From assembly GCF_013523055.1 (NCBI RefSeq), contig NZ_JAAMQM010000001.1:248001-312000 (forward strand): a stretch of 64,000 nt of DNA. Direction: 5' to 3'. A program made the translations under genes and the position numbers. The stretch comes from Pseudomonas capeferrum. GTDB lineage: Bacteria; Pseudomonadota; Gammaproteobacteria; Pseudomonadales; Pseudomonadaceae. Under the pieces are notes generated by a model. The model ran no database searches, was not told the DNA's origin, and worked only from the letters and a program-made list of their open reading frames with translations. Below, piece by piece: positions 14,284 through 64,000 of this stretch (the stretch's first letter is position 1; every line of letters begins with the position of its first letter).

Positions 14284-14807
14284 GCCGCCACCTCCGCCAG
14301 AGAAGCCCAGCGCTTGCCGTTTTTGATCCGGCTGACTTGTGCAGGAGATATTCCATACTTGGCACACATCTTTCGACCGGCGCCGTGCCCCTCGCGTAGA
14401 ACGGTATCCCGGACGTCCAATGCCTGAGCAGCAGTGAGGACAGCAGTTACGCATTTCTCACCGTCCTGCATCGTTCCATGACTGCGCATATCCATCTGGT
14501 TGCCTTGATGGCTATCCCAGCGGAGATTGCCTACAGAGTTGTTTGAGGGATTGCCATCGTTGTGGCACACATCCGTTTGGCCCTCATCTGGCTTCGGCAG
14601 GTATGCCAAAGCAACCAGGCGGTGGACCAGGCGACGGCAGGGCTTGCCGGTGTCATTGGCTCGCAAGATGTACGCGATGTATCCTGCTTCGGTCACCGTC
14701 CCCTTCAGCGCAACGCACTTGCCCCCACGTCGGCTCCGGACGTGGCCATTCGGGGAAACGTCATAGTCACTAAAGCCGGCGATAACGGTCCATGTGGTAC
14801 TGGTCAT
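14280..14807 (-). CDS. NUMOD4/HNH homing endonuclease
   Basis: The 175-residue protein starts TWTVIAGFSDYDVSPNGHVRS, a NUMOD4 motif, followed by an HNH_3 region (HRLVALAYLPKP, TDVCHNDGNPSNNSVGNLRWDS) and a C-terminal HTH-like piece (CAKYGISPAQVSRIKNGKRW). This order is that of free-standing phage homing endonucleases. TGGAGAAAAC precedes the ATG, and a terminator hairpin lies just before that. It overlaps the lysozyme-like gene by 4 bp. It is one of several such genes in this prophage. Confidence 0.85.
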   Translation of the reverse strand: MTSTTWTVIAGFSDYDVSPNGHVRSRRGGKCVALKGTVTEAGYIAYILRANDTGKPCRRLVHRLVALAYLPKPDEGQTDVCHNDGNPSNNSVGNLRWDSHQGNQMDMRSHGTMQDGEKCVTAVLTAAQALDVRDTVLREGHGAGRKMCAKYGISPAQVSRIKNGKRWASLAEVAA

Positions 14808-54809: not shown

Positions 54810-55001
54810 ATGGTCACCCCCGCAACCAAGACCGTCTGCCTGACGGTACGCGAAGCCGGTACCAAAATCATGGAGCTCCAAAGGAGCCCGCTTCTCGATG
54901 GCTTGCTCTACGCGGCTCACGTGCTGTCAGGCGCTGAGCGCCTGGAGCTGATCGCGCAACTTCAAGCAGTGCACGACGAGCTAGAGGCGCGTTTTCGATA
55001 G
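54810..55001 (+). CDS. 63-residue helical phage protein
   Basis: The product (TVCLTVREAGTKIMELQRSPLLDGLLYAAHVLSGAERLELIAQL) is mostly helical and ends in EARFR. AGGAGG lies 6 bp before the ATG. It is flanked by leader elements on both sides. The function is unknown. Confidence 0.6.
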   Translation: MVTPATKTVCLTVREAGTKIMELQRSPLLDGLLYAAHVLSGAERLELIAQLQAVHDELEARFR

Positions 55002-55007
55002 CCGCTT

Positions 55008-55053
55008 TCGCTGATGGGCTTTCAGCGATGGCCAAATGGGAAATCAATCGGAG
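55008..55053 (+). repeat. Early-gene leader element 4
   Basis: A perfect 7-bp hairpin TCGCTGA/TCAGCGA (loop TGGGCTT), then GGGAAATCAATCGGAG before the ATG at 55061. Confidence 0.6.
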
Positions 55054-55060
55054 ATCAATA

Positions 55061-55450
55061 ATGACTCAACTAAATCAACTATTTGAGCGCCTATCTTCAG
55101 CCTTAAAAATCCAGGCGCAAGCGGCGATGCGAATAGGGGAGCTGAAGGCGCAAACCCTCGAGGCGGAGGATGTGCTGTACTCGGCGCAAAGCGCTGTTCG
55201 AGACGCCGAGCACGCCATACGGCTTGAAGCTGCTCAAGGATGTTTCGGCGACCTTCCTGTCAACAAACTTGAAAAATCCGAGAAAGAAGTAGGTGGCAGC
55301 GATGGGCTGACAGTAAAGGTAGAGATGCCTGAAGCAGACGATGAAGAAATTCAGGCCCTGGTGAGCGGTATTGTAACCGCTGCGTGCGATGCCATTGTAA
55401 AGCGCCTCCAGCTCTGCGCCGAAGACGCTGTTAAGCCTACCGGCGCTTGA
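55061..55450 (+). CDS. 129-residue helical phage protein
   Basis: The protein (LFERLSSALKIQAQAAMRIGELKAQTLEAEDVLYSAQSAVRDAEHAIRLEAAQ, then DEEIQALVSGIVTAACDAIVKRLQLC) is a helical, probably coiled-coil product. ATG 55061 follows GGAGATCAATA; an earlier in-frame GTG-like start is inside the hairpin leader. It converges with a zinc-ribbon gene, overlapping by 14 bp. The function is unknown. Confidence 0.6.
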   Translation: MTQLNQLFERLSSALKIQAQAAMRIGELKAQTLEAEDVLYSAQSAVRDAEHAIRLEAAQGCFGDLPVNKLEKSEKEVGGSDGLTVKVEMPEADDEEIQALVSGIVTAACDAIVKRLQLCAEDAVKPTGA

Positions 55451-55658
55451 AGCCAAGTTTAGAGAGGCTTTTTGATAGCTCCTCTTTCATCTTTCTGGCC
55501 TGTTCTGCTGCGGCCTCCCGAAGTCCCTGTTGAATATCCTGCTTGCTTCCAAGCAAGGCGCTGCAGTCTGAGCACCGAACCATCTGGTCCGACTCTCCCT
55601 CCTCCGGAATAACAAGCTTGTCGCTTCCGCACGCCTTACAGGTTGCTTTGATATCCAT
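55437..55658 (-). CDS. ECs_2282-type zinc-ribbon protein
   Basis: The 73-residue protein (MDIKATCKACGSDKLVIPEE..., VRCSDCSALLGSKQDIQQGL) has CxxC...CxxC knuckles followed by a helical, basic end (ARKMKEELSKSLSKLGF). This matches the small zinc-binding family named after ECs_2282. AAGGAAATC precedes the ATG. It faces the early operon and thus needs its own promoter, like lysogenic cargo. Confidence 0.7.
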   Translation of the reverse strand: MDIKATCKACGSDKLVIPEEGESDQMVRCSDCSALLGSKQDIQQGLREAAAEQARKMKEELSKSLSKLGFKRR

Positions 55659-55923
55659 GCTGATTTCCTTGCTGAGTGTGTGGAAGCCTCAGCATATCGG
55701 GAACGCGTCACCTGCGTAGTGGTGAGAAGTCGGGGCTTACCGGCGCGCAGGCGAATCCGGGACCTGCCCGGTCAGTCCAGATGCTTCCCGGGCAGCGCCG
55801 GGCGCCTGCACCCATCTACCCCCTCAACTACGACTGCATCGGCAGGCGCCGGGCTGGCTTTTCACGCCCAGCTTGGTCACTGGTGTCCGGCGCCTGACCA
55901 ATGCAGTCAACCGAGACAACATC

Positions 55924-56307
55924 ATGGAAACGATCACCAGCGGGGCATGGATTGGCCATCTAGGCCGAGGTCTTGCGCCTCGAGAACTGCAATGTGTGCT
56001 CAACGTTGCTCAAGGCTTCACCAGCAAGGAAATCGCCAGGCTGCTCGGCATCACAGAGGGCACAGTCGAAAAGCGCGTTGCCGCGGCGATGTTCAAGCTT
56101 GAGGCCTCCCGCCGTGCCTCCTTAGTTGCTGAAGCCTTGAAGCGGCAGATCATCAATCCGCTGTGCATCGCCCTGGCGGGCCTCATAGCCATGCATTCGG
56201 CAATCGATATCAACGACCCGATGCGTCGCGATCGCCGCTCCCCTGAGCGCCGCTACGCCCAAACCCAAGTCGTTCGCAAGGCCGAGGCCTTCGAGCTCCA
56301 CGCCTGA
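55924..56307 (+). CDS. LuxR-type HTH regulator
   Basis: The 127-residue protein has a GerE/LuxR helix-turn-helix (LAPRELQCVLNVAQGFTSKEIARLLGITEGTVEKRVAAAMFKL, residues 18-60) but no sensing domain. A helical membrane-like piece (INPLCIALAGLIAMHSAI) and a basic end follow. It probably controls phage genes. The 265 bp upstream contain GC-rich inverted stretches (GGCGCC) but no gene. Confidence 0.8.
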   Translation: METITSGAWIGHLGRGLAPRELQCVLNVAQGFTSKEIARLLGITEGTVEKRVAAAMFKLEASRRASLVAEALKRQIINPLCIALAGLIAMHSAIDINDPMRRDRRSPERRYAQTQVVRKAEAFELHA

Positions 56308-56324
56308 CCCCTGAGGAAACCACC

Positions 56325-56594
56325 ATGCACCCAGCCATGCAGCAGCGCGTGGACGGCCTGGCCGTCCTGCGCGAACGAACCATCCTGGCCACCGCCGACT
56401 TCTACGCGAAGATCGGCCGTCCGGCGCCCGCCCCTGGCCCCCGCTTCCAGGCGGTAACCAAAGGCAGGATGTGGCACATCATCGACAGGACCACCGGCAA
56501 GACCTGCGGTTTTTGCGGCAGCTACGTCGCAGCTCAGCATTTTGTCCAGGCAATGGAGGCGGCTGCCGGGCGCAAGCTGATCGGGCGGCAATGA
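56325..56594 (+). CDS. 89-residue phage protein
   Basis: The product (VDGLAVLRERTILATADFYAKIGRPAPAPGPRFQAV, GRMWHIIDRTTGKTCGFCGSYVAAQHFVQAMEAAAG) has a helical start and a W-H-I-x-D-x-x-TGK-x-x-GF-x-x-S-x-x-xA pattern common in small Pseudomonas phage proteins. Its stop overlaps the next start (ATGA). The function is unknown. Confidence 0.6.
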   Translation: MHPAMQQRVDGLAVLRERTILATADFYAKIGRPAPAPGPRFQAVTKGRMWHIIDRTTGKTCGFCGSYVAAQHFVQAMEAAAGRKLIGRQ

Positions 56595-57106
56595 TCGGCG
56601 AAAACATTCCAGATCAACATGAGCAGGCGCGACGTGACCTGGGCGCAAGTGTGGCTCGGTTCCTGGCCGAGGGCGGGCAGATCCAGCAGTGCACCGGCGC
56701 CGGGTCCGTACCGCGCGAGCCGAACCTCCGCTCATATCCAGCACCACAGCCGCAAGCGGCACAGATCGACAGGAAGCTGCTCGATCAGGCGCGCCAGGCT
56801 GCCAAGACCATGACCCTGAGCGAAGCCTGCGCGCAGCTGGGCGTCAGCCGGACGACGCTGCATCACCTCAGCAAGCAGCATGGGTTCCTGTTCAGGGTGA
56901 ACACCAAGCAGAAGGCTGAACGCGACATCAAACGCCAGGCCAGGACAAAGGCCCGCGCCGAACTCGTCGACAAGATCCGCACCTACGCCCACACCAGTCT
57001 CAGTCGAGACGCCGTCGCCAAGCTGCTCGGCATCAGCCATCAGCAGCTGAGCAAGCTGGCGAAGCAACACGACATCGATTTTCCCAAGTGGCGCAGGCCC
57101 GCATGA
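56591..57106 (+). CDS. HTH DNA-binding phage protein
   Basis: The 171-residue protein carries two helix-turn-helix-like units, LSEACAQLGVSRTTLHHLSKQHGF and LSRDAVAKLLGISHQQLSKLAKQHDI, with a basic linker between them. Such double-HTH proteins occur in phage early regions and probably regulate or help replication. It overlaps the previous gene. Its specific role is unknown. Confidence 0.7.
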   Translation: MIGENIPDQHEQARRDLGASVARFLAEGGQIQQCTGAGSVPREPNLRSYPAPQPQAAQIDRKLLDQARQAAKTMTLSEACAQLGVSRTTLHHLSKQHGFLFRVNTKQKAERDIKRQARTKARAELVDKIRTYAHTSLSRDAVAKLLGISHQQLSKLAKQHDIDFPKWRRPA

Positions 57107-57285
57107 AACGAACGTTCAACCGCGCGCGCCACGGTCGGCGCCAGCAGCACATCAATCTGCCGCCCAGCGGCATCGTTCCCCAGGAGACGCAGCAATGCCA
57201 ACCCCAACCGATACCACCGAGTTCCTGCAGGAGTTCAATGGCGGCGCATTCGCCAGCCAGATCGGCCATGCCCTCTCGGAAGTAG
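57103..57285 (+). CDS. Possible small basic protein overlapping the next gene
   Basis: An ATG overlaps the previous stop (ATGA) and opens 60 codons (MKRTFNRARHGRRQQHINLP...). The N-terminal part is very basic. It overlaps the next, better supported gene by 91 bp in another frame, so it may be an untranslated accident or a short coupled peptide. Confidence 0.3.
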   Translation: MKRTFNRARHGRRQQHINLPPSGIVPQETQQCQPQPIPPSSCRSSMAAHSPARSAMPSRK

Positions 57286-57542
57286 CCGCGGGCGTCGTCG
57301 ACCACGGCAAGGCCGGCAAGCTCACCATCACCCTGGACTTCAGCCAGATCGGCGACTCCCACCAGGTGAAGATCAAGCACAAGCTCGATTACAAGGTGCC
57401 GACCAAGCGCGGTACCCGCAGCGAGAACACCAGCCTCGACACGCCGATGTACGTCGGTACCGGCGGCAATATCTCCCTCTTCCCCGAAAAGCATGACCAG
57501 CTCTTCACCCGCGACCAAGCCCCAATCCACCCACGCTCCTAA
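57195..57542 (+). CDS. 115-residue conserved-type phage protein
   Basis: The product (TTEFLQEFNGGAFASQIGHALSEVAAGVVDHGKAGKLTITLDFSQIGDSHQVKIKHKLDYKVPT) has helix-strand organisation and ends before DUF2303. The GxxFxxxxGxALSxVAxGVxxxGKxGKxxxxxxxxxI pattern is known from phage genes that always precede DUF2303. ATG follows AGGAGACGCAGCA. The function is unknown. Confidence 0.75.
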   Translation: MPTPTDTTEFLQEFNGGAFASQIGHALSEVAAGVVDHGKAGKLTITLDFSQIGDSHQVKIKHKLDYKVPTKRGTRSENTSLDTPMYVGTGGNISLFPEKHDQLFTRDQAPIHPRS

Positions 57543-57559
57543 CCCGCAAGGAATCTCGC

Positions 57560-58375
57560 ATGTCCCTCAGCAAAGAAGCTCTTCAGCACATCGGCGACCA
57601 GGCCCTGGCGGCCGCTGCCAAACCCCTCGAAACCGACGCCCCGACAGTCATCGTTCCGGAAGGCGCCAAGATCGTGGACCTGGAGCGGTTCCAACTCGGG
57701 CGCAGCCGCTTCCGTGGCACCTACTCCACGCATTCGCTGGCCGACTTCGGCGCCTATGTGGTCGAGCGCTCGGCGCCATACGCTCGAGGCTTCATCGACC
57801 AGGACGCCATGAGCTGCATCGTGCTGTTCAACATCGGCACGCCAGCTGAGCCAGGTCACGCCGATGATCGCGCCGTGCTGCGCCTGAAAGCCTCGGCAGC
57901 CTTCGCCGCAGTGCAAGCCGTGTGCGGCCAGAGCCTGGCCCAGAAGGCGATGAGCGACTGGATCGAGGACTGGAACCAGCACCTGACCGCGACCGACGAG
58001 AACGGCGCCAGCATGTCGATCGCCAAGGCCATCGCTGCGGTACGCACCATCACCGTTAAGGCTTCGTCCGAAAGCGACCACGCTGTAGGCGAGACCCGCG
58101 CCAGCCGTAGCACCATGGACGCGATCGAGGCCAGCAGCAAGGAGACCTTGCCAGCCTGGCTGGACTTCAAGGTCATCCCCTTCGAGGGCCTGAGCGAGCA
58201 GGTAATCCGCCTGCGCATGTCGGTCATCACCAGCGGCGCACAACCGGTGCTCAAGCTGCGCTGGCTCGGTGAAGAGGCGCAGCGCGAGGCCATCGCCCAA
58301 GAGTTTAAATCGGTCCTTGAATCCAAAGTGGCCGACGCTGCCAAGCTGGCACTGGGCACCTTCGACGCCAAATGA
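57560..58375 (+). CDS. DUF2303 (YfdQ-like) phage protein
   Basis: The 271-residue protein (FQLGRSRFRGTYSTHSLADFGAYVVERS, QKAMSDWIEDWNQHL, SRSTMDAIEASSKETLPAWLDFKVIPFEGLSEQVIRLRMSVI) is a typical DUF2303 member. These are found in the early operons of many temperate phages; the function is unknown. A 17-bp gap and weak ribosome site (AAGGAA) lie upstream. It is directly followed by the first DGR target gene. Confidence 0.88.
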   Translation: MSLSKEALQHIGDQALAAAAKPLETDAPTVIVPEGAKIVDLERFQLGRSRFRGTYSTHSLADFGAYVVERSAPYARGFIDQDAMSCIVLFNIGTPAEPGHADDRAVLRLKASAAFAAVQAVCGQSLAQKAMSDWIEDWNQHLTATDENGASMSIAKAIAAVRTITVKASSESDHAVGETRASRSTMDAIEASSKETLPAWLDFKVIPFEGLSEQVIRLRMSVITSGAQPVLKLRWLGEEAQREAIAQEFKSVLESKVADAAKLALGTFDAK

Positions 58376-58392
58376 TCCACTGGGGAACCACC

Positions 58393-58986
58393 ATGCAGAC
58401 ACCTAGCATCAGCATCAAGAACCTCACCCTGAATATCCATGCAGCGCCGAAGGCCACAATTCCTGGCCTCGCAATGCTCGGTGCCGCGATCGCCGCAGGA
58501 GGGGTCACAACAGCCGAAGCGCCAACCAACACCCCAGAAGTGGGCCAGGTCTGGCCCGGTGAAGGCGGCATAAATGGCGGGCTGGTTCCGGCGCGCGGCG
58601 ATGTACCAGAGCACTACCTGATCATCGCGTCCAAGGACATCGGTGACCATGCATGGGGTGGTCGAGGCAGCGAGTCGGAAGCCACCAGCAAGACCGATGG
58701 GCGACACAACACGCTGAAGCTGATCAAGGGCGAACACCCAGCAGCCAAGTCCGCTTATGAGTTCTCTGCCGACGGGCATGACGACTTCTATCTGCCGGCC
58801 GCCGCTGAGCTTTATCACTGCTGGGTGAACTGCTCCGAGGTGTTCGCGCAGGATTGCTACTACTGGTCATCTTCGCAGCGCTCCGCCAGCTACGCATTCA
58901 CCATGCTCTTCGATGATGGCTATCAGTACAGCTGCGGCAAGGGCTACGAGCTCCGCGTCCGCCCCGTCCGCAGGTTGTTCATTTAA
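58393..58986 (+). CDS. DUF1566 C-type-lectin-like protein, DGR target 1
   Basis: The 197-residue protein has a short N-terminal part (MQTPSISIKNLTLNIHAAPK...) and a Lcl_C/DUF1566-type domain (HDDFYLPAAAELYHCWVN, YYWSSSQRSASYAFTM) ending LRVRPVRRLFI. Such domains display variable residues in DGR systems such as Bordetella Mtd and Legionella LdtA. Its last 39 codons before the end are a variable repeat shared with the next gene. No signal peptide is seen, so display on the virion is a better guess than on the cell. Confidence 0.8.
   Translation: MQTPSISIKNLTLNIHAAPKATIPGLAMLGAAIAAGGVTTAEAPTNTPEVGQVWPGEGGINGGLVPARGDVPEHYLIIASKDIGDHAWGGRGSESEATSKTDGRHNTLKLIKGEHPAAKSAYEFSADGHDDFYLPAAAELYHCWVNCSEVFAQDCYYWSSSQRSASYAFTMLFDDGYQYSCGKGYELRVRPVRRLFI
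58858..58974 (+). repeat. DGR variable repeat VR1
   Basis: This 117-bp repeat matches 59532-59648 at 104 positions. The 13 differences fall in 10 codons, none in a third position, and 10 of the 13 sites have A in one copy. The last 27 bp (GAGCTCCGC...CGCAGG) are identical and GC-rich, like an IMH sequence. Confidence 0.85.
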
Positions 58987-59005
58987 TCCTTCATTCATCC
59001 ATTCC

Positions 59006-59027
59006 AGGGCGCCCAGGCGCCTTTTTT
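59006..59027 (+). terminator. Hairpin with T-run behind VR1
   Basis: GGCGCC and GGCGCC pair around a short loop and six T follow. It is a terminator, but it also lies where DGR targets carry a DNA hairpin just behind the variable repeat. Confidence 0.7.
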
Positions 59028-59051
59028 GTTGCCTTCAGAAAGGAGCAGCAC

Positions 59052-59663
59052 ATGAGCGCAGTAGAGAAATCGGTACCCGTTGCACTTCCCGAGATAGGTC
59101 AGCCCTTCGGTGGCGGCTTCTTCTCCGGCGTCACCGTCGAGCACGGCCAGCGCTACGCCAACATCACCTCAGGCGGCGAGCATGAGCTGGTCGGCGAATG
59201 GGGTGAGTACGGCGTGAAGATTGACGGCGCCGACAGCTTCACCGACAGCCGCGCCAACACGGAAGCGATGGCCGCATCCGGTAGCGAGCTCGCACAGAAG
59301 GTCCTGACCCTGGATATCGGCGGCTTCACAGACTGGGCCATCCCGGCGCGCGACGTGCAGGAGCTGCAGTACCGGCACTTCAAGCCGACCAGCCGCGAGA
59401 ACTATGCATGGAACCGTGACGGCGATAACCCCAACAGCCTGCCGGCGGGCTTGCTGTACACCGAAGAGTCGCCAGCCAGGACGCAGGTAGCGGGCTTCGC
59501 TGAAGGCGAGCCAGAGGCCTTCCAGCCGCGCTACTACTGGTCATCTTCGCAGCGCTCCGCCAGCTACGCATTCAACATGGTCTTCGTTGCTGGCACTCAG
59601 GGCTACGGCGGCAAGGACAACGAGCTCCGCGTCCGCCCCGTCCGCAGGTCGCTTATTGATTAA
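59052..59663 (+). CDS. DUF1566 C-type-lectin-like protein, DGR target 2
   Basis: The 203-residue protein (PVALPEIGQPFGGGFFSG, GGFTDWAIPARDVQELQYRHFKP, RYYWSSSQRSASYAFNM) ends ELRVRPVRRSLID. It has the full DUF1566 plan, with a GGFTDWAIP segment typical of the family. Its N-terminal half is unrelated to target 1, while the last 39 codons form the second variable repeat. AGGAGCAGCAC precedes the ATG. Both targets stand directly before the Avd remnant. Confidence 0.85.
   Translation: MSAVEKSVPVALPEIGQPFGGGFFSGVTVEHGQRYANITSGGEHELVGEWGEYGVKIDGADSFTDSRANTEAMAASGSELAQKVLTLDIGGFTDWAIPARDVQELQYRHFKPTSRENYAWNRDGDNPNSLPAGLLYTEESPARTQVAGFAEGEPEAFQPRYYWSSSQRSASYAFNMVFVAGTQGYGGKDNELRVRPVRRSLID
59532..59648 (+). 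repeat. DGR variable repeat VR2
   Basis: This is the partner of VR1. The first 42 bp and the last 27 bp are identical; the middle holds all substitutions (AAC/ACC, GTC/CTC, GTT/GAT, GCT/GAT, ACT/TAT, GGC/TAC, TAC/AGC, GGC/TGC, GAC/GGC, AAC/TAC). Confidence 0.85.
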
Positions 59664-59677
59664 TTCACTTATTCAAT

Positions 59678-59695
59678 CCGGCCGCTTGCGGCCGG
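59678..59695 (+). repeat. Hairpin behind VR2
   Basis: CCGGCCG and CGGCCGG form a perfect 7-bp stem with a CTTG loop, 30 bp behind the end of VR2. Known DGRs use such hairpins or cruciforms for efficient target recognition. Confidence 0.65.
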
Positions 59696-59717
59696 TTGCT
59701 CCAGGAGGATCGCCGCA

Positions 59718-59963
59718 ATGGCAATGCACATGGACCTGCAAATCTACAAAGCTTCGCTCGGCTTGCTGCAGATGGCCACAAACCTCACCCGCAATATCCC
59801 GCGAGACTTGAAGCAGTCCCTCGGTAAGCGGGTGATCGATGAATGCATCGACGTGCTGATGCTCATCGCCCGGGCCAATTCCACACAGGACAAAGCGACC
59901 ACACCTGACTTACTAGAAAGGAAAGCATCATGCGCACCAAGCACGGCGGTTGCGGGACTCTGA
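59718..59963 (+). pseudogene. avd: Avd (DGR accessory protein), truncated
   Basis: Residues 1-71 (LQIYKASLGLLQMATNLTRNIPRDLKQSLGKRVIDECIDVLMLIARANSTQDKA) match the first half of Avd, the four-helix-bundle partner of DGR reverse transcriptases: IPRD-x-K-x-x-LG-x-R, E-x-x-x-x-x-LM-x-I-x-RANS-x-x-KA. The usual protein has some 110-125 residues. Here, near residue 71, the coding sequence runs into the HNH gene that starts at 59930, and the frame ends after a short foreign tail. Helices 3-4 are lost, so the pentamer is unlikely to form. Confidence 0.8.
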
Positions 59964-60370
59964 CCTACTTGCGCTGGAAGTCGATGATGCAGCGCTGCAA
60001 TACGCCGACCTGCGGCAACTACAAGTATTACGGCGCGCGCGGGGTGAAGGTCTGCGGCCGTTGGCACGACTTCGCCAACTTCCGTGAAGACATGGGCGAA
60101 TGCCCTGATCGGTCCATGACGCTGGATAGAATCGAGAACCACAAGGGATACGAGCCCGGGAACTGCAGGTGGGTCACTCAGGCAGCTCAGAACAAGAACC
60201 GCACCCACTGCGTGCTGCTGGAGCATAACGGCGCCACTAAAAACGTGGTCGACTGGGCTGCCGAAATCGGGATTACCGCCAATGCTCTGAGTATGCGTCT
60301 GCGGCTCGGCTGGAGTGTCGAAAAGGCACTGACCACACCGCTTAAAGCCAGTCCGAAGCCAAAGAAGTAG
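59930..60370 (+). CDS. HNH homing endonuclease replacing the DGR core
   Basis: The 146-residue protein (LTYLRWKSMMQRCNTPTCGNYKYYGARGVKVCGRWHDFANFREDMG, TLDRIENHKGYEPGNCRWVTQAAQNKNR) is a common phage HNH type with GARG-x-x-V-C-x-x-W, DRI-N-x-x-GY-x-x-x-NCRW. A C-terminal HTH follows (VVDWAAEIGITANALSMRLRLGWSVEKAL). It starts inside the avd coding region, with GAAAGGAAAG as ribosome site. It ends 4 bp before the RT-like remnant, in the place of the template repeat and the RT gene. Confidence 0.88.
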   Translation: MRTKHGGCGTLTYLRWKSMMQRCNTPTCGNYKYYGARGVKVCGRWHDFANFREDMGECPDRSMTLDRIENHKGYEPGNCRWVTQAAQNKNRTHCVLLEHNGATKNVVDWAAEIGITANALSMRLRLGWSVEKALTTPLKASPKPKK

Positions 60371-60374
60371 ACGT

Positions 60375-60503
60375 AACAGCTATTTCGGACTGTTCACCCA
60401 AGCCAGCCACAGCCAGAAAGACCGCGCTGCGTTAGCCAACTTGGTGCTGCGCCGCAGCTCTGTCGTCAACGGCGACCTGACCAAGACGTACCAGAAGCGA
60501 TGA
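60375..60503 (+). pseudogene. C-terminal remnant of the DGR reverse transcriptase
   Basis: Forty-two codons open directly behind the HNH gene read NSYFGLFTQASHSQKDRAAL followed by ANLVLRRSSVVNGDLTKTYQ, then KR and stop. NSY-x-GL-x-x-x-A is the thumb-end signature of DGR-type reverse transcriptases. The catalytic palm (YxDD) is absent from the window. There is no start codon at the junction. Assignment as RT rests on this short signature and on its place behind avd. Confidence 0.65.
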
Positions 60504-60628
60504 GCCCCATCAAATGCGAAGCTCCGCACGAAGGATGGCGCCACGCAGGTGCGAGGTATGACGAAGCATGGCGCTAGCCTTCGATCGGAAGAGCATGCTG
60601 ATGATTCAGCAGGATCCGGGGGATGAGA

Positions 60629-61126
60629 TCATAAATCCGTCATTCCAAGGTCTTGCCTGACCTTTTTTCTAAGCAGTTCTGCCTTGACTGGATCAGGCTC
60701 AACAAATGACCAAATTTCGTTCATATTGCTGAACAGTCGCTTCATACCAGGACTGTTCTTAGCGACATCCAAATTATTTTCCCCCATTAGGTGCTTGATC
60801 AACAGCAGGATTTCTCCAGACGTTATGTATGAATTCTCGACAGTAACTGCAGAGACTCTGCGTAGTTGATCGCGGATTTTTTCAACTTCCTCCCTAGCAA
60901 GCATGGCGGCTGTCGCATCCCGCTTTATCGAGGCCTTCCAGATGGTGATCTCGGTAATGTCATGGCCAAATATCATCGCGGCAGACACGACTAACCAAAG
61001 CGCGCCAACCGACAGGAAGACCGGCAGACCAATTGCGCCGGAGAAGACGGCAACCGGCAAGCCCATAACGGTCACCGCAAGAAGGGCAAACCCGCATCGT
61101 CCTGACAACCCAATCGGTTTACCCAT
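60629..61126 (-). CDS. Membrane protein on opposite strand, cargo type
   Basis: The 165-residue protein has two N-terminal membrane helices (GFALLAVTVMGLPVAVFSGAIGLPVFLSVGALWLVVSAAMIFGH) and a cytoplasmic coiled coil plus helical tail (MLAREEVEKIRDQLRRVSAVT ... LLIKHLMGENNLDVAKNSPGMKRLF). It runs against the early operon and is more AT-rich, so it is probably lysogenic cargo. The gap 60504-60628 to its left shows no gene. The function is unknown. Confidence 0.65.
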   Translation of the reverse strand: MGKPIGLSGRCGFALLAVTVMGLPVAVFSGAIGLPVFLSVGALWLVVSAAMIFGHDITEITIWKASIKRDATAAMLAREEVEKIRDQLRRVSAVTVENSYITSGEILLLIKHLMGENNLDVAKNSPGMKRLFSNMNEIWSFVEPDPVKAELLRKKVRQDLGMTDL

Positions 61127-61239
61127 AGCTTACCCCTGTTGTGCCCCGCCCCATGCCGGTCACCCGTAATACCCCATCTCAAACCAAATTGCCACCATGC
61201 CGCGACCCTGGCAGGGCCTCGCGCATCCAGGAGAAACAC

Positions 61240-61980
61240 ATGAAGGTTGACACCGAAGTCATGGCGGCGCTCAGCGCTTCCCGCACCGATGGCAACAAGC
61301 TATTCATCACCAGCGGCCAGCTGGATCGAAACTTGTATGCCCGCCTGGACAAGGTCCTGAAGGCGGCCGGAGGCAAATGGAATACCAAGGCTAAAGCGCA
61401 TCTGTTTGCTGATGACGCCGCCGATGCGATCGAAAACATCATCCTCACCGGCGAGATCGCGGTACCGAAGGACCTTGGCTTCTTCCCAACGCCTGGCCCT
61501 GTGGTTGATCGGCTACTGGAGCTCGCGCAGCTGGGCAAGGGAATGTCTGCCCTAGAGCCTTCTGCGGGCCGAGGCGCCATTGCCAGAGCCCTGGCCATCG
61601 CCGGCCTTGAGGTAGATTGCGTCGAGCTTCTGCCGTACAACGCTAACCACCTGGAGCAATTGCCCTTCCGCTCTGTACGGTGCGCCGACTTCCTCAGCAT
61701 TGAGCCAGAACCGATCTATGACCGCGTCGTGATGAACCCGCCGTTCGACAAGAAGCGCAGCGATATTCACCACGTGCTGCACGCTCTAAAGTTCCTCCGG
61801 CCGCGGGGGCTTCTGGTGGCGATCATGCCTACGGGTGTTATCTTCCGAGAGGACGCCCTATCCCGGGACTTCAGGGGCATCGTATCAGCGCGCAGCGGCA
61901 ACATCGTCAACCTGCCTGACGCGTCCTTCAAGACCTCCGGCACCATGGTCAACACCTGCGTCGCGATCATTTCGGCTTGA
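61240..61980 (+). CDS. DNA N6-adenine-type methyltransferase
   Basis: The 246-residue protein has a SAM-binding motif I (ALEPSAGRGAIARALA), a motif IV NPPF (VMNPPFDKKRSDIHHVLHALKFLRPRGLL) and an N-terminal non-catalytic part (LYARLDKVLKAAGGKWNTKAKAHLF). These are typical of phage class I methyltransferases. It probably modifies adenine in phage DNA to escape host restriction; the recognised site is unknown. ATG 61240 follows CAGGAGAAACAC. It ends in a strong terminator. Confidence 0.85.
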   Translation: MKVDTEVMAALSASRTDGNKLFITSGQLDRNLYARLDKVLKAAGGKWNTKAKAHLFADDAADAIENIILTGEIAVPKDLGFFPTPGPVVDRLLELAQLGKGMSALEPSAGRGAIARALAIAGLEVDCVELLPYNANHLEQLPFRSVRCADFLSIEPEPIYDRVVMNPPFDKKRSDIHHVLHALKFLRPRGLLVAIMPTGVIFREDALSRDFRGIVSARSGNIVNLPDASFKTSGTMVNTCVAIISA

Positions 61981-62014
61981 GCATCAGCTAGTTAGAAAAC
62001 GTAATCGGCGACGA

Positions 62015-62044
62015 AAAAAAAAGACTGAAAAATCAGTCTTTTTT
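62015..62044 (+). terminator. Terminator behind the methyltransferase
   Basis: AAAAGACTGA and TCAGTCTTTT form a 10-bp stem with an AAAA loop and flanking A and T runs. It is active in both directions in principle. Confidence 0.85.
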
Positions 62045-62109
62045 CAAATTGGTGCGGGTCTTGGGCAAATCAGATTTCCCCGGGCGGCCTATTGGTAGCT
62101 CGCCACAAA

Positions 62110-62337
62110 CTAAAGCTCGAATGCCTGGCCAGTCCTTTCAGACCCCGCAGTAACCGCCTCGCACCAGTTCAGCATTGTCATAATCGTCATAGCAACCCCC
62201 AGGTCAAATACAGCAATGAATGGAGCGATTGGAAGGTACAGCGTTACCAGATCGGCTAGGACGGCCAGGACTTCGGTTAGCTTTAGGTTGCAGTTCACTA
62301 TGAACCCAACGCTGTAGGCATGCGACACAAGCCGCAA
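62110..62337 (-). CDS. Doubtful small hydrophobic protein
   Basis: A 75-codon frame (MRLVSHAYSVGFIVNCNLKL..., LADLVTLYLPIAPFIAVFDLGVAMTIMTML) gives two hydrophobic stretches. No ribosome site precedes its ATG. It fills an otherwise empty 455-bp gap between the methyltransferase and the next plus-strand gene. It may be real cargo or chance. Confidence 0.3.
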   Translation of the reverse strand: MRLVSHAYSVGFIVNCNLKLTEVLAVLADLVTLYLPIAPFIAVFDLGVAMTIMTMLNWCEAVTAGSERTGQAFEL

Positions 62338-62436
62338 GCCAATATCCCATCCTACTCAACGACTAAATCTTCTTCAACCCAATTGCCACCATGCCGCATC
62401 CGGCTACGGAGGGCGGCGCCTGCAATGGAGATTGCC

Positions 62437-62825
62437 ATGAGCACGTTCGCCGTCTTCGGCATGACCGCCGATGTCGCCCTGGCCGAGGCCAGAAAGCGCA
62501 CCAAGACCACCAAGCCAAACCCCAAGCCGGGCTGCCCCCCCCCCTGGAGCTAACGCCCACCGAGTGGAATGAAGCTGTCGAACAGCATGCCGCCAAGATC
62601 ATGAGCAGTGACAAGGTGAAGCAGCTGAGTCATTTCTTCGACGCACCTCAGTACGCGCAGCAGTTCATCGATCTCGCCCGGAAAGCTGGCAACTGTCGCG
62701 ACCTGCGGATCCGGGCGAAGTGCGTGGTCACCGATGCCAAGGGCAAGCCGGTACTCAATCCGAAAACGAAGATGCCAAAGATCGGCTGGACCGAGTACCG
62801 GCCCGATGACGCGAAGGCCGCCTAA
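62437..62825 (+). pseudogene. Phage protein interrupted at a C10 tract
   Basis: The gene begins MSTFAVFGMTADVALAEARK and reaches KPGCPPP at a run of ten C (62535-62544), after which the frame stops. The rest (LELTPTEWNEAVEQHAAKIMSSDKVKQLSHFFDAPQYAQQFIDLARKAG ... KMPKIGWTEYRPDDAK) lies in the -1 frame. A C8 or C11 tract would join them into one protein of about 130 residues. It may be a sequencing error, a real mutation, or a slippage-controlled gene. The function is unknown. Confidence 0.7.
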
Positions 62826-62863
62826 CCACGAAGGACCCGGTCACCGGGTCGAGAGGTATCCCT

Positions 62864-63064
62864 ATGTGCCAGATCCTCTACCGCGAAGGCCGTCAATGGG
62901 CCCTCGACTCAATCAGAGCGCTGCGCGAACTGTCCGGAAAGGGCGATCGCTACCGCCAGCTCGTCAACTACCTGGAGCGCGGGACGGTTGGCCGGCCTGC
63001 AGCCTTCTGCAACGGGGTAAACGATGTCATTGCCGAGGTGAAGCGCCTCGGGGAGGCAGCATGA
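62864..63064 (+). CDS. 66-residue phage protein
   Basis: The product (CQILYREGRQWALDSIRALRELSGKGDRYRQLVNYLERG, VGRPAAFCNGVNDVIAEVKRLGEA) is helical. A perfect hairpin GACCCGG-TCA-CCGGGTC stands at 62835-62851, just before the ribosome site GAGAGG. It overlaps the next gene (ATGA). The function is unknown. Confidence 0.6.
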   Translation: MCQILYREGRQWALDSIRALRELSGKGDRYRQLVNYLERGTVGRPAAFCNGVNDVIAEVKRLGEAA

Positions 63065-63264
63065 ATATCCAGCACCGAACCGTCGATGTGCCGCACCTCA
63101 ACATCGCCCAGAGCATCCGCCGGTCAAGCGACCCCTACCGGGCGTCAATTGCTTGCTTCACAAGCCGCGACGTGAGCGATACCCGCAAGACCTTCTACTT
63201 CGAAGATGGGAGCCGCCTGGCCTTCCAGATCACTTACACAGCTGTGGAGGATGGAACCGAATGA
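63061..63264 (+). CDS. 67-residue phage protein
   Basis: The product (RTVDVPHLNIAQSIRRSSDPYRASIACFTSRDVSDTRKTFYFEDGSRLAFQITYTAVEDG) is a short strand-rich protein overlapping both neighbours by 4 bp in an ATGA chain. No family is recognised. Confidence 0.55.
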   Translation: MNIQHRTVDVPHLNIAQSIRRSSDPYRASIACFTSRDVSDTRKTFYFEDGSRLAFQITYTAVEDGTE

Positions 63265-63566
63265 GCAACAACGAAATGATCAGCGTGCCGCGTGAGCTCA
63301 CGCCCGAGATGCGCGAAGCATTCCACGAGGCGCACGATCGATACGAAGAAGGCATAGGCGAAAGTCCCGACAGCCAGTGGCGTGCGATGCTGCGAGCTGC
63401 ACCCAAGTCGACCGAGCAGCCTCAGGGCGATCCGGTGGCACTTCCTGAGCGCAAAGACCCCACCCAGTACTGGGTTGAGCCTGGCGGGGTTCATAAGGCG
63501 GAAGGCTGGAACGCCTGCCTTGACGAAATTGCCAAGCTTAACGAAGGGGAATCGCATGGCGAATAA
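63261..63566 (+). CDS. 101-residue phage protein
   Basis: The product (MSNNEMISVPRELTPEMREAFHEAHDRYEEG, SPDSQWRAMLRAAP, EGWNACLDEIAKLNEGE) shows the VPRELT-E-M-x-E-A-x-H and WNACLDEIAKL segments of a very common small phage protein. Its function is unknown. It overlaps the HNH gene behind it by 11 bp. Confidence 0.65.
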   Translation: MSNNEMISVPRELTPEMREAFHEAHDRYEEGIGESPDSQWRAMLRAAPKSTEQPQGDPVALPERKDPTQYWVEPGGVHKAEGWNACLDEIAKLNEGESHGE

Positions 63567-64000
63567 ATGCATTCAATTCCTCATGGGTGCTCCAGAAACA
63601 GATGACTGCGTGCTATGGCCTTTCGCCCTATCTGGGTATCGATATGGACAGATGTACTTCCAGGGGAAGCAGGCTCGCGCCCATCGAGTTCAGTTCTACC
63701 TGAATAATGGGTTCTACCCAGAGAACGTTATGCACCAGTGTGACAATACGAAGTGCGTGAACCCTAAGCACCTGAAAGCTGGAACCCGAGCACAGAACGC
63801 ATGCGACATGGCTGTAAAGGGGCGCGTTCACGGCCAGAAGGTAGCCCTCACCGACGAACAGGTCGCTGAGATTCGCGCATCCTACAGGTATCGAGTAGTT
63901 GGATGCCGTCAACTCGGAAAGAAATACGGCGTGAGCGATGAAACAATCAGGGACATCGTGACTGGCAAAAACAGAAAGGCAAAGGCCCCAGACTGGAGTG
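63556..64000 (+). CDS. HNH endonuclease, cut by window end
   Basis: The frame MANKCIQFLMGAPETDDCVLW... runs to the edge (148 codons). It has a phage HNH_3 core (RAHRVQFYLNNGFYPENVMHQCDNTKCVNPKHLKAGT) and an HTH (VALTDEQVAEIRASYRYRVVGCRQLGKKYGVSDETIRDIVTGK), the usual homing endonuclease plan. It follows the early operon chain. The C-terminus lies outside. Confidence 0.85.
   Translation, partial: MANKCIQFLMGAPETDDCVLWPFALSGYRYGQMYFQGKQARAHRVQFYLNNGFYPENVMHQCDNTKCVNPKHLKAGTRAQNACDMAVKGRVHGQKVALTDEQVAEIRASYRYRVVGCRQLGKKYGVSDETIRDIVTGKNRKAKAPDWS

What the first reader, a model, noticed from the sequence alone, without database searches (positions are those of the whole stretch)
58858..59648. Two adjacent variable repeats with an adenine-mutagenesis signature (DGR targets)
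The 3' ends of two neighbouring DUF1566 genes share a 117-bp repeat. I count 13 substitutions in 10 codons, none at a third position; the first 42 and last 27 bp are identical. At 10 of the 13 sites one copy has A, and the other three (C/G, T/G, T/G) fit both copies having been changed from A. Template codons such as AAC, AAT and GAT would explain all sites. This is the hallmark of a diversity-generating retroelement, here with two targets in the early operon of an HK97-type prophage rather than in the tail genes.
Basis: partly seen in the sequence, partly recalled or inferred. Interest (0 to 1): 0.95.

Follow-up and report, generated by a model that had tools for sequence, protein, structure and literature searches.

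The report
Hypermutation targets stripped of their retroelement
Two neighbouring prophage genes in a Pseudomonas genome carry the adenine-only changes of a retroelement that likely rewrote them, but its template and almost all of its reverse transcriptase are gone and a predicted DNA-cutting (HNH) gene lies in their place, a swap also seen in related phages that would switch such hypermutation off.

Summary
The repeat is real. Against the template repeat (TR) most common in related phages, each window copy differs at 14 of 101 positions, all 14 of them template adenines. So the two DUF1566/Lcl_C genes were targets of a diversity-generating retroelement (DGR). Relatives carry it whole: VP1, VP2, avd, RT-15 RNA, TR, RT.

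The DGR itself is gone. The genome search found no TR and no DGR reverse transcriptase. Behind VP2 lie a truncated, frameshifted avd, an HNH gene (59930-60370) and the last 42 codons of the RT (60375-60503). The flanks resemble a DGR-bearing phage (L015, 85-89%); the HNH gene resembles L066 and L289.

This recurs. Of 13 other RT-less loci found without an HNH query, 11 have an HNH gene where TR and RT belong; 0 of 60 RT-bearing loci do. Four HNH types share a 3' junction, within about ten bases, at the RT's conserved NSYFG codons.

Best explanation: an orphaned DGR whose core was likely replaced by homing endonuclease genes. Nuclease action and present silence are inferred, not shown.

The parts
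58372..58986 (+). VP1, Lcl_C/DUF1566-like target gene (204-aa frame from 58372; an inner ATG lies at 58393)
   Evidence: ORF; Lcl_C E 2e-5, below the curated cut-off; phrog_4245 E 1e-30
58873..58973 (+). VR1, variable region core inside the 120-bp repeat 58856-58975
   Evidence: 14 of 14 mismatches to the relatives' TR are at TR adenines
59052..59663 (+). VP2, Lcl_C/DUF1566-like target gene (203 aa)
59547..59647 (+). VR2, variable region core inside the 120-bp repeat 59530-59649
   Evidence: 14 of 14 mismatches to the relatives' TR are at TR adenines
59678..59695 (+). hairpin behind VR2 (7-bp stem, 4-nt loop), candidate target-recognition element
   Evidence: z -3.3; same geometry as in PMC3240598 but not its GRNA loop
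59718..59908 (+). avd remnant: N-terminal half, one extra base near 59893, then truncated
   Evidence: 63% to Cruim01 Avd residues 1-59 of 118; phrog_3206 'Avd protein of DGR' E 3e-13; NF033474 E 8e-5, below cut-off; Pfam bAvd only E 0.1; frameshift seen
59930..60370 (+). HNH endonuclease gene (146 aa, type A) in the place of TR and RT
   Evidence: phrog_3377 HNH endonuclease E 6e-50; no Pfam or NCBIfam match
60375..60503 (+). RT scar: last 42 codons of the DGR reverse transcriptase with its stop codon, starting at NSYFG, four bases behind the HNH stop

Best explanation
These are two genes that a diversity-generating retroelement likely rewrote at template adenines, and this prophage has since lost the template, nearly all of the reverse transcriptase and half of avd, with an HNH endonuclease gene now lying between the scars, so the genes are predicted to be frozen. 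Shown by sequence: adenine-only differences to the TR of relatives; no TR or DGR RT found in this genome; the avd and RT scars; the HNH gene between them; and the same kind of swap in related phages. Inferred: a phage close to L015 with a live DGR met a phage that carried the HNH cassette; the HNH enzyme cut the RT gene at or near its conserved NSYFG codons; repair copied the cassette in, as in the intronless homing of free-standing phage endonucleases, and the core was lost. VP1 and VP2 stayed intact, as fixed and (for VP2, by its model) C-type-lectin-like binding proteins, probably made early in the phage programme. As their VRs show no drift at non-A sites, the loss is likely recent, unless a visiting DGR phage refreshes them in trans.
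For: 28 of 28 VR mismatches at TR adenines. Complete cassettes in relatives: 48 of the 58 viral contigs show an RT, two of them in part. No TR and no DGR RT in the genome. Avd remnant, HNH gene and RT scar in order. Flanks nearest to DGR-bearing L015 (VP2 85.4%, avd remnant 88.8%, RT scar 86.5%), HNH nearest to L066 (84.5%) and L289 (81.2%). 11 of 13 other RT-less loci have an HNH gene in the same place, 0 of 60 RT-bearing loci do. Shared 3' junction of types A-D in a block of the RT gene conserved like its catalytic motifs. HNH dS 0.77 and 1.42 to L066 and L289, but 0 changes at about 44 synonymous non-A sites of the window VRs. HNH under purifying selection, dN/dS 0.06-0.09. No group I intron or other RNA family at the HNH genes in 12 loci.
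Against: No cleavage is shown. HNH genes are common in such phages (two more HNH-like stretches in the window), so some could have drifted in after the loss. 2 of the 13 RT-less loci (L301, G272) have no HNH at the site, and L239's is frameshifted. The 13 are not all independent: L294 and G004 have the same HNH protein, L073/L075 and L055/L062 are near kin. The 3' junction lies elsewhere in L239 (RT residue 301), L073/L075 (about 356), L301 (about 346) and in the distant L123 and L124. The window's HNH protein has no Pfam match. The genome is in 95 contigs, so a TR or RT in a gap is not strictly excluded.
Confidence: 0.72

Rival explanations
1. The targets are still live: a related DGR phage that infects or shares the cell supplies RT, Avd and TR RNA in trans and keeps rewriting the orphan VRs.
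For: VR1 and VR2 have 0 non-A mismatches to extant TRs, like 90 of 136 VRs beside an RT. The hairpin behind VR2 is intact. DGR prophages are common in the genus: 33 of 398 genomes hold the RT tail, and some genomes (G191, G197, G226, G286, G361) hold two copies.
Against: This genome has no such element. Other RT-less loci do drift at non-A sites (L066 6 and 5, L053 3, 3, 3, G272 6 and 7, L301 8). A recent loss explains zero drift as well.
Confidence: 0.15
2. The HNH gene is a passenger: TR and RT were lost by plain deletion or by ordinary module exchange between phages, and HNH genes then filled or hitch-hiked on the gap without cutting the RT.
For: L301 and G272 lost the RT without an HNH gene at the site. 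HNH genes are frequent in phages: 594 relatives of this one in a capped scan. These phages encode ERF-type or YqaJ recombination genes upstream.
Against: 11 of 13 against 0 of 60; one junction shared by four HNH types; two superfamilies and at least two origins among types A and C alone; type A relatives beside DGR remnants in distant phages.
Confidence: 0.3
3. The repeat is an ordinary duplication of a C-terminal domain kept alike by gene conversion, with positive selection on surface residues; no retroelement was involved.
For: VP1 and VP2 are distant paralogues that share a near-identical 3' end.
Against: All 28 mismatches to the relatives' TR lie on its adenines; conversion predicts no such bias. 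In 136 TR-VR pairs A is changed in 1959 of 4208 cells against 64 of 9528 for C, G and T together.
Confidence: 0.01

Closest known systems
DGR of Pseudomonas phage Cruim01 (PP179333.1, annotated RT-15 and 'retron-type RNA-directed DNA polymerase') and its kin
   Same: Two adjacent Lcl_C targets, then avd, in the same early-type gene neighbourhood
   Different: Cruim01 keeps RT-15 RNA, TR and RT; the window has lost them and has an HNH gene there
Bordetella phage BPP-1 DGR (mtd, avd, TR, brt; order recalled)
   Same: Gene order; adenine-specific change; GC-rich hairpin behind the VR (PMC3240598, passages)
   Different: BPP-1 has one target, the tail fibre protein; here two targets among early-type genes, hairpin loop not GRNA, and no machinery
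RT-less DGR fragments of Nanoarchaeota (PMC4372165, passages)
   Same: VR-type variation at sites without an RT; the authors weighed fossils against remote diversification
   Different: There the RT-bearing DGRs are in the same genomes; here none was found, and an HNH gene marks the place of the loss
Free-standing HNH homing endonucleases of phages (intronless homing; PMC2988022 and PMC12724721, listing and start of abstract only)
   Same: An HNH gene placed at a conserved gene, absent from sister alleles, with a history unlike that of its flanks
   Different: Here the recipient gene and the rest of the retroelement core are removed; cutting is untested

Membership tests
Diversity-generating retroelement (DGR) | VR differs from TR at adenines only | tested here: met
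   28 of 28 mismatches on adenines, measured against the TR of relatives because the window has none
Diversity-generating retroelement (DGR) | Template repeat in the same element or genome | tested here: not met
   Only the two VRs found; next match E 0.06, 28 bases. The pattern search covers the 5' part of the repeat that TRs lack, so it is no test of the TR
Diversity-generating retroelement (DGR) | DGR-type reverse transcriptase | tested here: not met
   Only the last 42 codons remain; the three RVT_1 proteins of the genome have QG..xSP motifs, whereas the RT of relatives reads IGNLSSQ (the motif rule is recalled)
Diversity-generating retroelement (DGR) | Accessory protein Avd | tested here: not met
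   About 63 of 118 codons, with a frameshift
Diversity-generating retroelement (DGR) | VR at the C-terminal end of a C-type-lectin-fold target | tested here: met
Diversity-generating retroelement (DGR) | GC-rich hairpin behind the VR | tested here: met
   VR2 yes (7-bp stem, z -3.3); VR1 only a 5-bp stem, z -1.2
Free-standing HNH homing endonuclease | HNH-type endonuclease protein | tested here: met
   phrog_3377 E 6e-50; types B, D, E, F have Pfam HNH_3; types A and C have no Pfam match
Free-standing HNH homing endonuclease | Occupied and empty alleles at a conserved site, cassette history unlike its flanks, no intron | tested here: met
   but part of the recipient is deleted, which simple homing does not require
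Free-standing HNH homing endonuclease | Cuts the allele that lacks it | not testable with these tools
   Only circumstantial: the junction lies in a strongly conserved RT block

The most novel reading that the evidence does not exclude
HNH homing endonucleases of several lineages prey on DGRs: they cut the reverse-transcriptase gene at its conserved NSYFG codons, replace template and RT, and so switch a phage's hypermutation off, leaving frozen antibody-like target genes that may be rewritten again when a DGR phage visits.
Probability: 0.4. Interest if true: 0.8.

Novelty: new variant of a known kind. Interest (0 to 1): 0.62.

Why it matters
A search that starts from the reverse transcriptase misses targets that have lost it. 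These loci show how a hypermutation system can end: its core is replaced by another mobile gene, often at the same conserved RT codons. That makes two questions testable: whether homing endonucleases act against retroelements in phages, and whether diversified binding proteins keep a use once diversification stops. Outside the VR, VP2 is under purifying selection in RT-less loci (dN/dS 0.08-0.15 in the closer pairs, 0.27 between window and L066), which argues that they do.

Tried and rejected
Remote template in the same genome: none found. Another DGR RT in the genome: none; the three RVT_1 proteins (frames of 589, 479 and 573 aa) have QG..xSP motifs and look like group II intron or other RTs, which I did not classify further. 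Rfam match in window 55000-64000: none at E up to 1. Group I intron around the HNH genes: none at gathering score in 12 loci. VP1 structure: unusable. A first scan for orphan VRs returned nothing because of an offset error in my script; repeated. The BPP-1 target protein fold is not among the rows shown, which is inconclusive.

Literature. Searches for 'diversity-generating retroelement' with 'homing endonuclease' (8 papers) and with 'HNH endonuclease' (7 papers). Passages read of PMC12386605 and PMC13220884; in these passages no HNH gene replaces a DGR core. The other papers of these two lists: listing only. PMC6642488, PMC4372165 and PMC3240598: passages. PMC8144416: outline and sections 8 and 9; a term search in it gave 0 places for six terms. 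The library lacks most subscription papers and holds no preprints, so I do not claim that this is absent from print.

Rows left out of counts of RT-less loci: contig ends L029, L037, L044, L068, L082; distant VP relatives L070, L071; short stretches L107, L112, L113, L116, L118; loci found with an HNH query L202, L204, L205, L122-L124, L160. The 172 full-RT loci and the 60 are not deduplicated by contig.

Full report
What is there. The 3' ends of two neighbouring genes (VP1, 58372-58986; VP2, 59052-59663) share a 120-bp repeat, 58856-58975 and 59530-59649, with 13 differences in 10 codons and none at a third position. Elsewhere the two proteins are distant relatives. Both are Lcl_C/DUF1566-like, below Pfam's curated cut-off, and match phrog_4245. 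They lie in an HK97-type prophage, behind a DUF2303 gene. In Cruim01 and Medea1 the same pair follows single-strand-binding and recombination-type genes. Early expression is inferred from this neighbourhood, not measured.

The machinery is gone. No other copy of the repeat and no DGR RT were found in the genome (95 contigs, completeness given as 100). Behind VP2, avd runs for about 63 codons' length with one extra base near 59893. Then come an HNH gene (phrog_3377, E 6e-50) and, four bases after its stop, the last 42 codons of the RT with the stop codon. The stretch is contiguous within one contig.

The swap recurs. Besides the window, 13 RT-less loci came from VP2 or RT-tail queries: L038, L053, L055, L062, L066, phages Aurca01 L073 and Medea1 L075, L289, L294, L301, L239, and genomes G004 and G272. 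Eleven have an HNH gene where TR and RT belong; L301 and G272 do not, and L239's HNH frame is broken. The loci are not all independent: L294 and G004 carry the same HNH protein, and L073/L075 and L055/L062 are near kin. None of 60 RT-bearing VP2 loci has any of the six HNH types between VP2 and RT end. In the genus sample the RT tail is in 33 of 398 genomes at 38 places, 3 of them without RT (window, G004, G272). The HNH types form two superfamilies, A and C (phrog_3377/374) and B, D, E, F (HNH_3, D and F with NUMOD4). On a tree A and C are apart; well-supported branches force at least two label changes (few columns, bootstrap not settled).

Junctions. The intact RT reads ACCGCCAACAGCTAYTTCGG at codons T-A-N-S-Y-F-G (N at residue 343). 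RT homology resumes within about ten bases there behind type A (window, L289), B (L053), C (L055, L062, L202, L204, L205) and D (L294, G004). It resumes elsewhere in L239, L073/L075, L301 and in the distant L123 and L124. The block ANSYFGL is the seventh best of non-overlapping 21-bp blocks of the RT gene in 76 RTs (mean majority identity 0.948); the best two overlap the TR and the next four include catalytic-type motifs. 5' junctions vary: avd near codon 64-67 in the window and L066, avd near codon 92 in L055, inside the TR in L062, and at the RT start in L289, where about half a TR survives.

Origin of the window's cassette. VP2, avd remnant and RT scar are near to DGR-bearing phages such as L015 (85.4, 88.8 and 86.5% DNA identity; L256 87.6% for VP2), whereas the HNH gene is near to L066 (84.5%) and L289 (81.2%). 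The HNH genes differ at silent sites by dS 0.77 and 1.42 under purifying selection (dN/dS 0.06-0.09), yet the window VRs show no change at about 44 synonymous non-A sites. The cassette lineage is thus older than the loss in this prophage, which points to a recent arrival. L066 has 6 and 5 non-A changes, L289, L055, L202 and L205 none. The three best-listed other relatives of this HNH, L122-L124, stand beside DGR-type variable proteins and before an RT tail, L122 and L123 with a truncated avd. Of the 80 HNH loci kept, 4 show DGR-type genes (L160 without an RT tail) and 76 do not.

Mechanism. Best supported: HNH cassettes move by intronless homing into the RT gene of DGR phages and the core is lost. 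The cut and the present silence of VR1 and VR2 are inferred. Rivals: rewriting in trans by a visiting DGR phage, and passenger status of the HNH genes.

Known and new. DGRs with DUF1566 targets, with several targets and in Pseudomonas are known (PMC6642488, passages), and RT-less DGR fragments were noted in Nanoarchaeota (PMC4372165, passages). The recurrent HNH replacement at one RT site is what I found no account of in the searches named under Tried and rejected.

Noticed in passing
L018:1652-1752; also L019, L023, L028, L029, L032, L033, L035, L042, L048, L053, L056: Many relatives have a third Lcl_C gene with a similar VR, mostly about 2-7 kb upstream of the pair. The window shows none.
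   Followed up: partly
L072:8010-8202, L289:3331-3514, L062:9016-9207, L301:3880-4044: The Rfam family RT-15 (RF03018) stands directly before the TR and survives in three RT-less loci; it is likely the 5' part of this DGR's RNA, though Rfam's entry name does not say so.
   Followed up: partly
L076:9188-9288 and 9228 onward: The TR overlaps the first ~24 codons of the RT frame, read in another frame, so TR adenines also set RT residues.
   Followed up: no
window 63604-63978 (+) and 14295-14807 (-): Two more HNH-like stretches lie in the window.
   Followed up: no
G191, G197, G226, G286, G361: These genomes hold two places with an RT tail in a long frame, that is two such DGRs in one cell.
   Followed up: no
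L123:2981-3065, L124:3850-3932: C4 antisense RNA matches lie just before the HNH gene in two of the distant DGR remnants.
   Followed up: no
L059:9229-10002: The RT match stops at residue 271 of 386, unlike in its near kin L052 and L063; not resolved.
   Followed up: no
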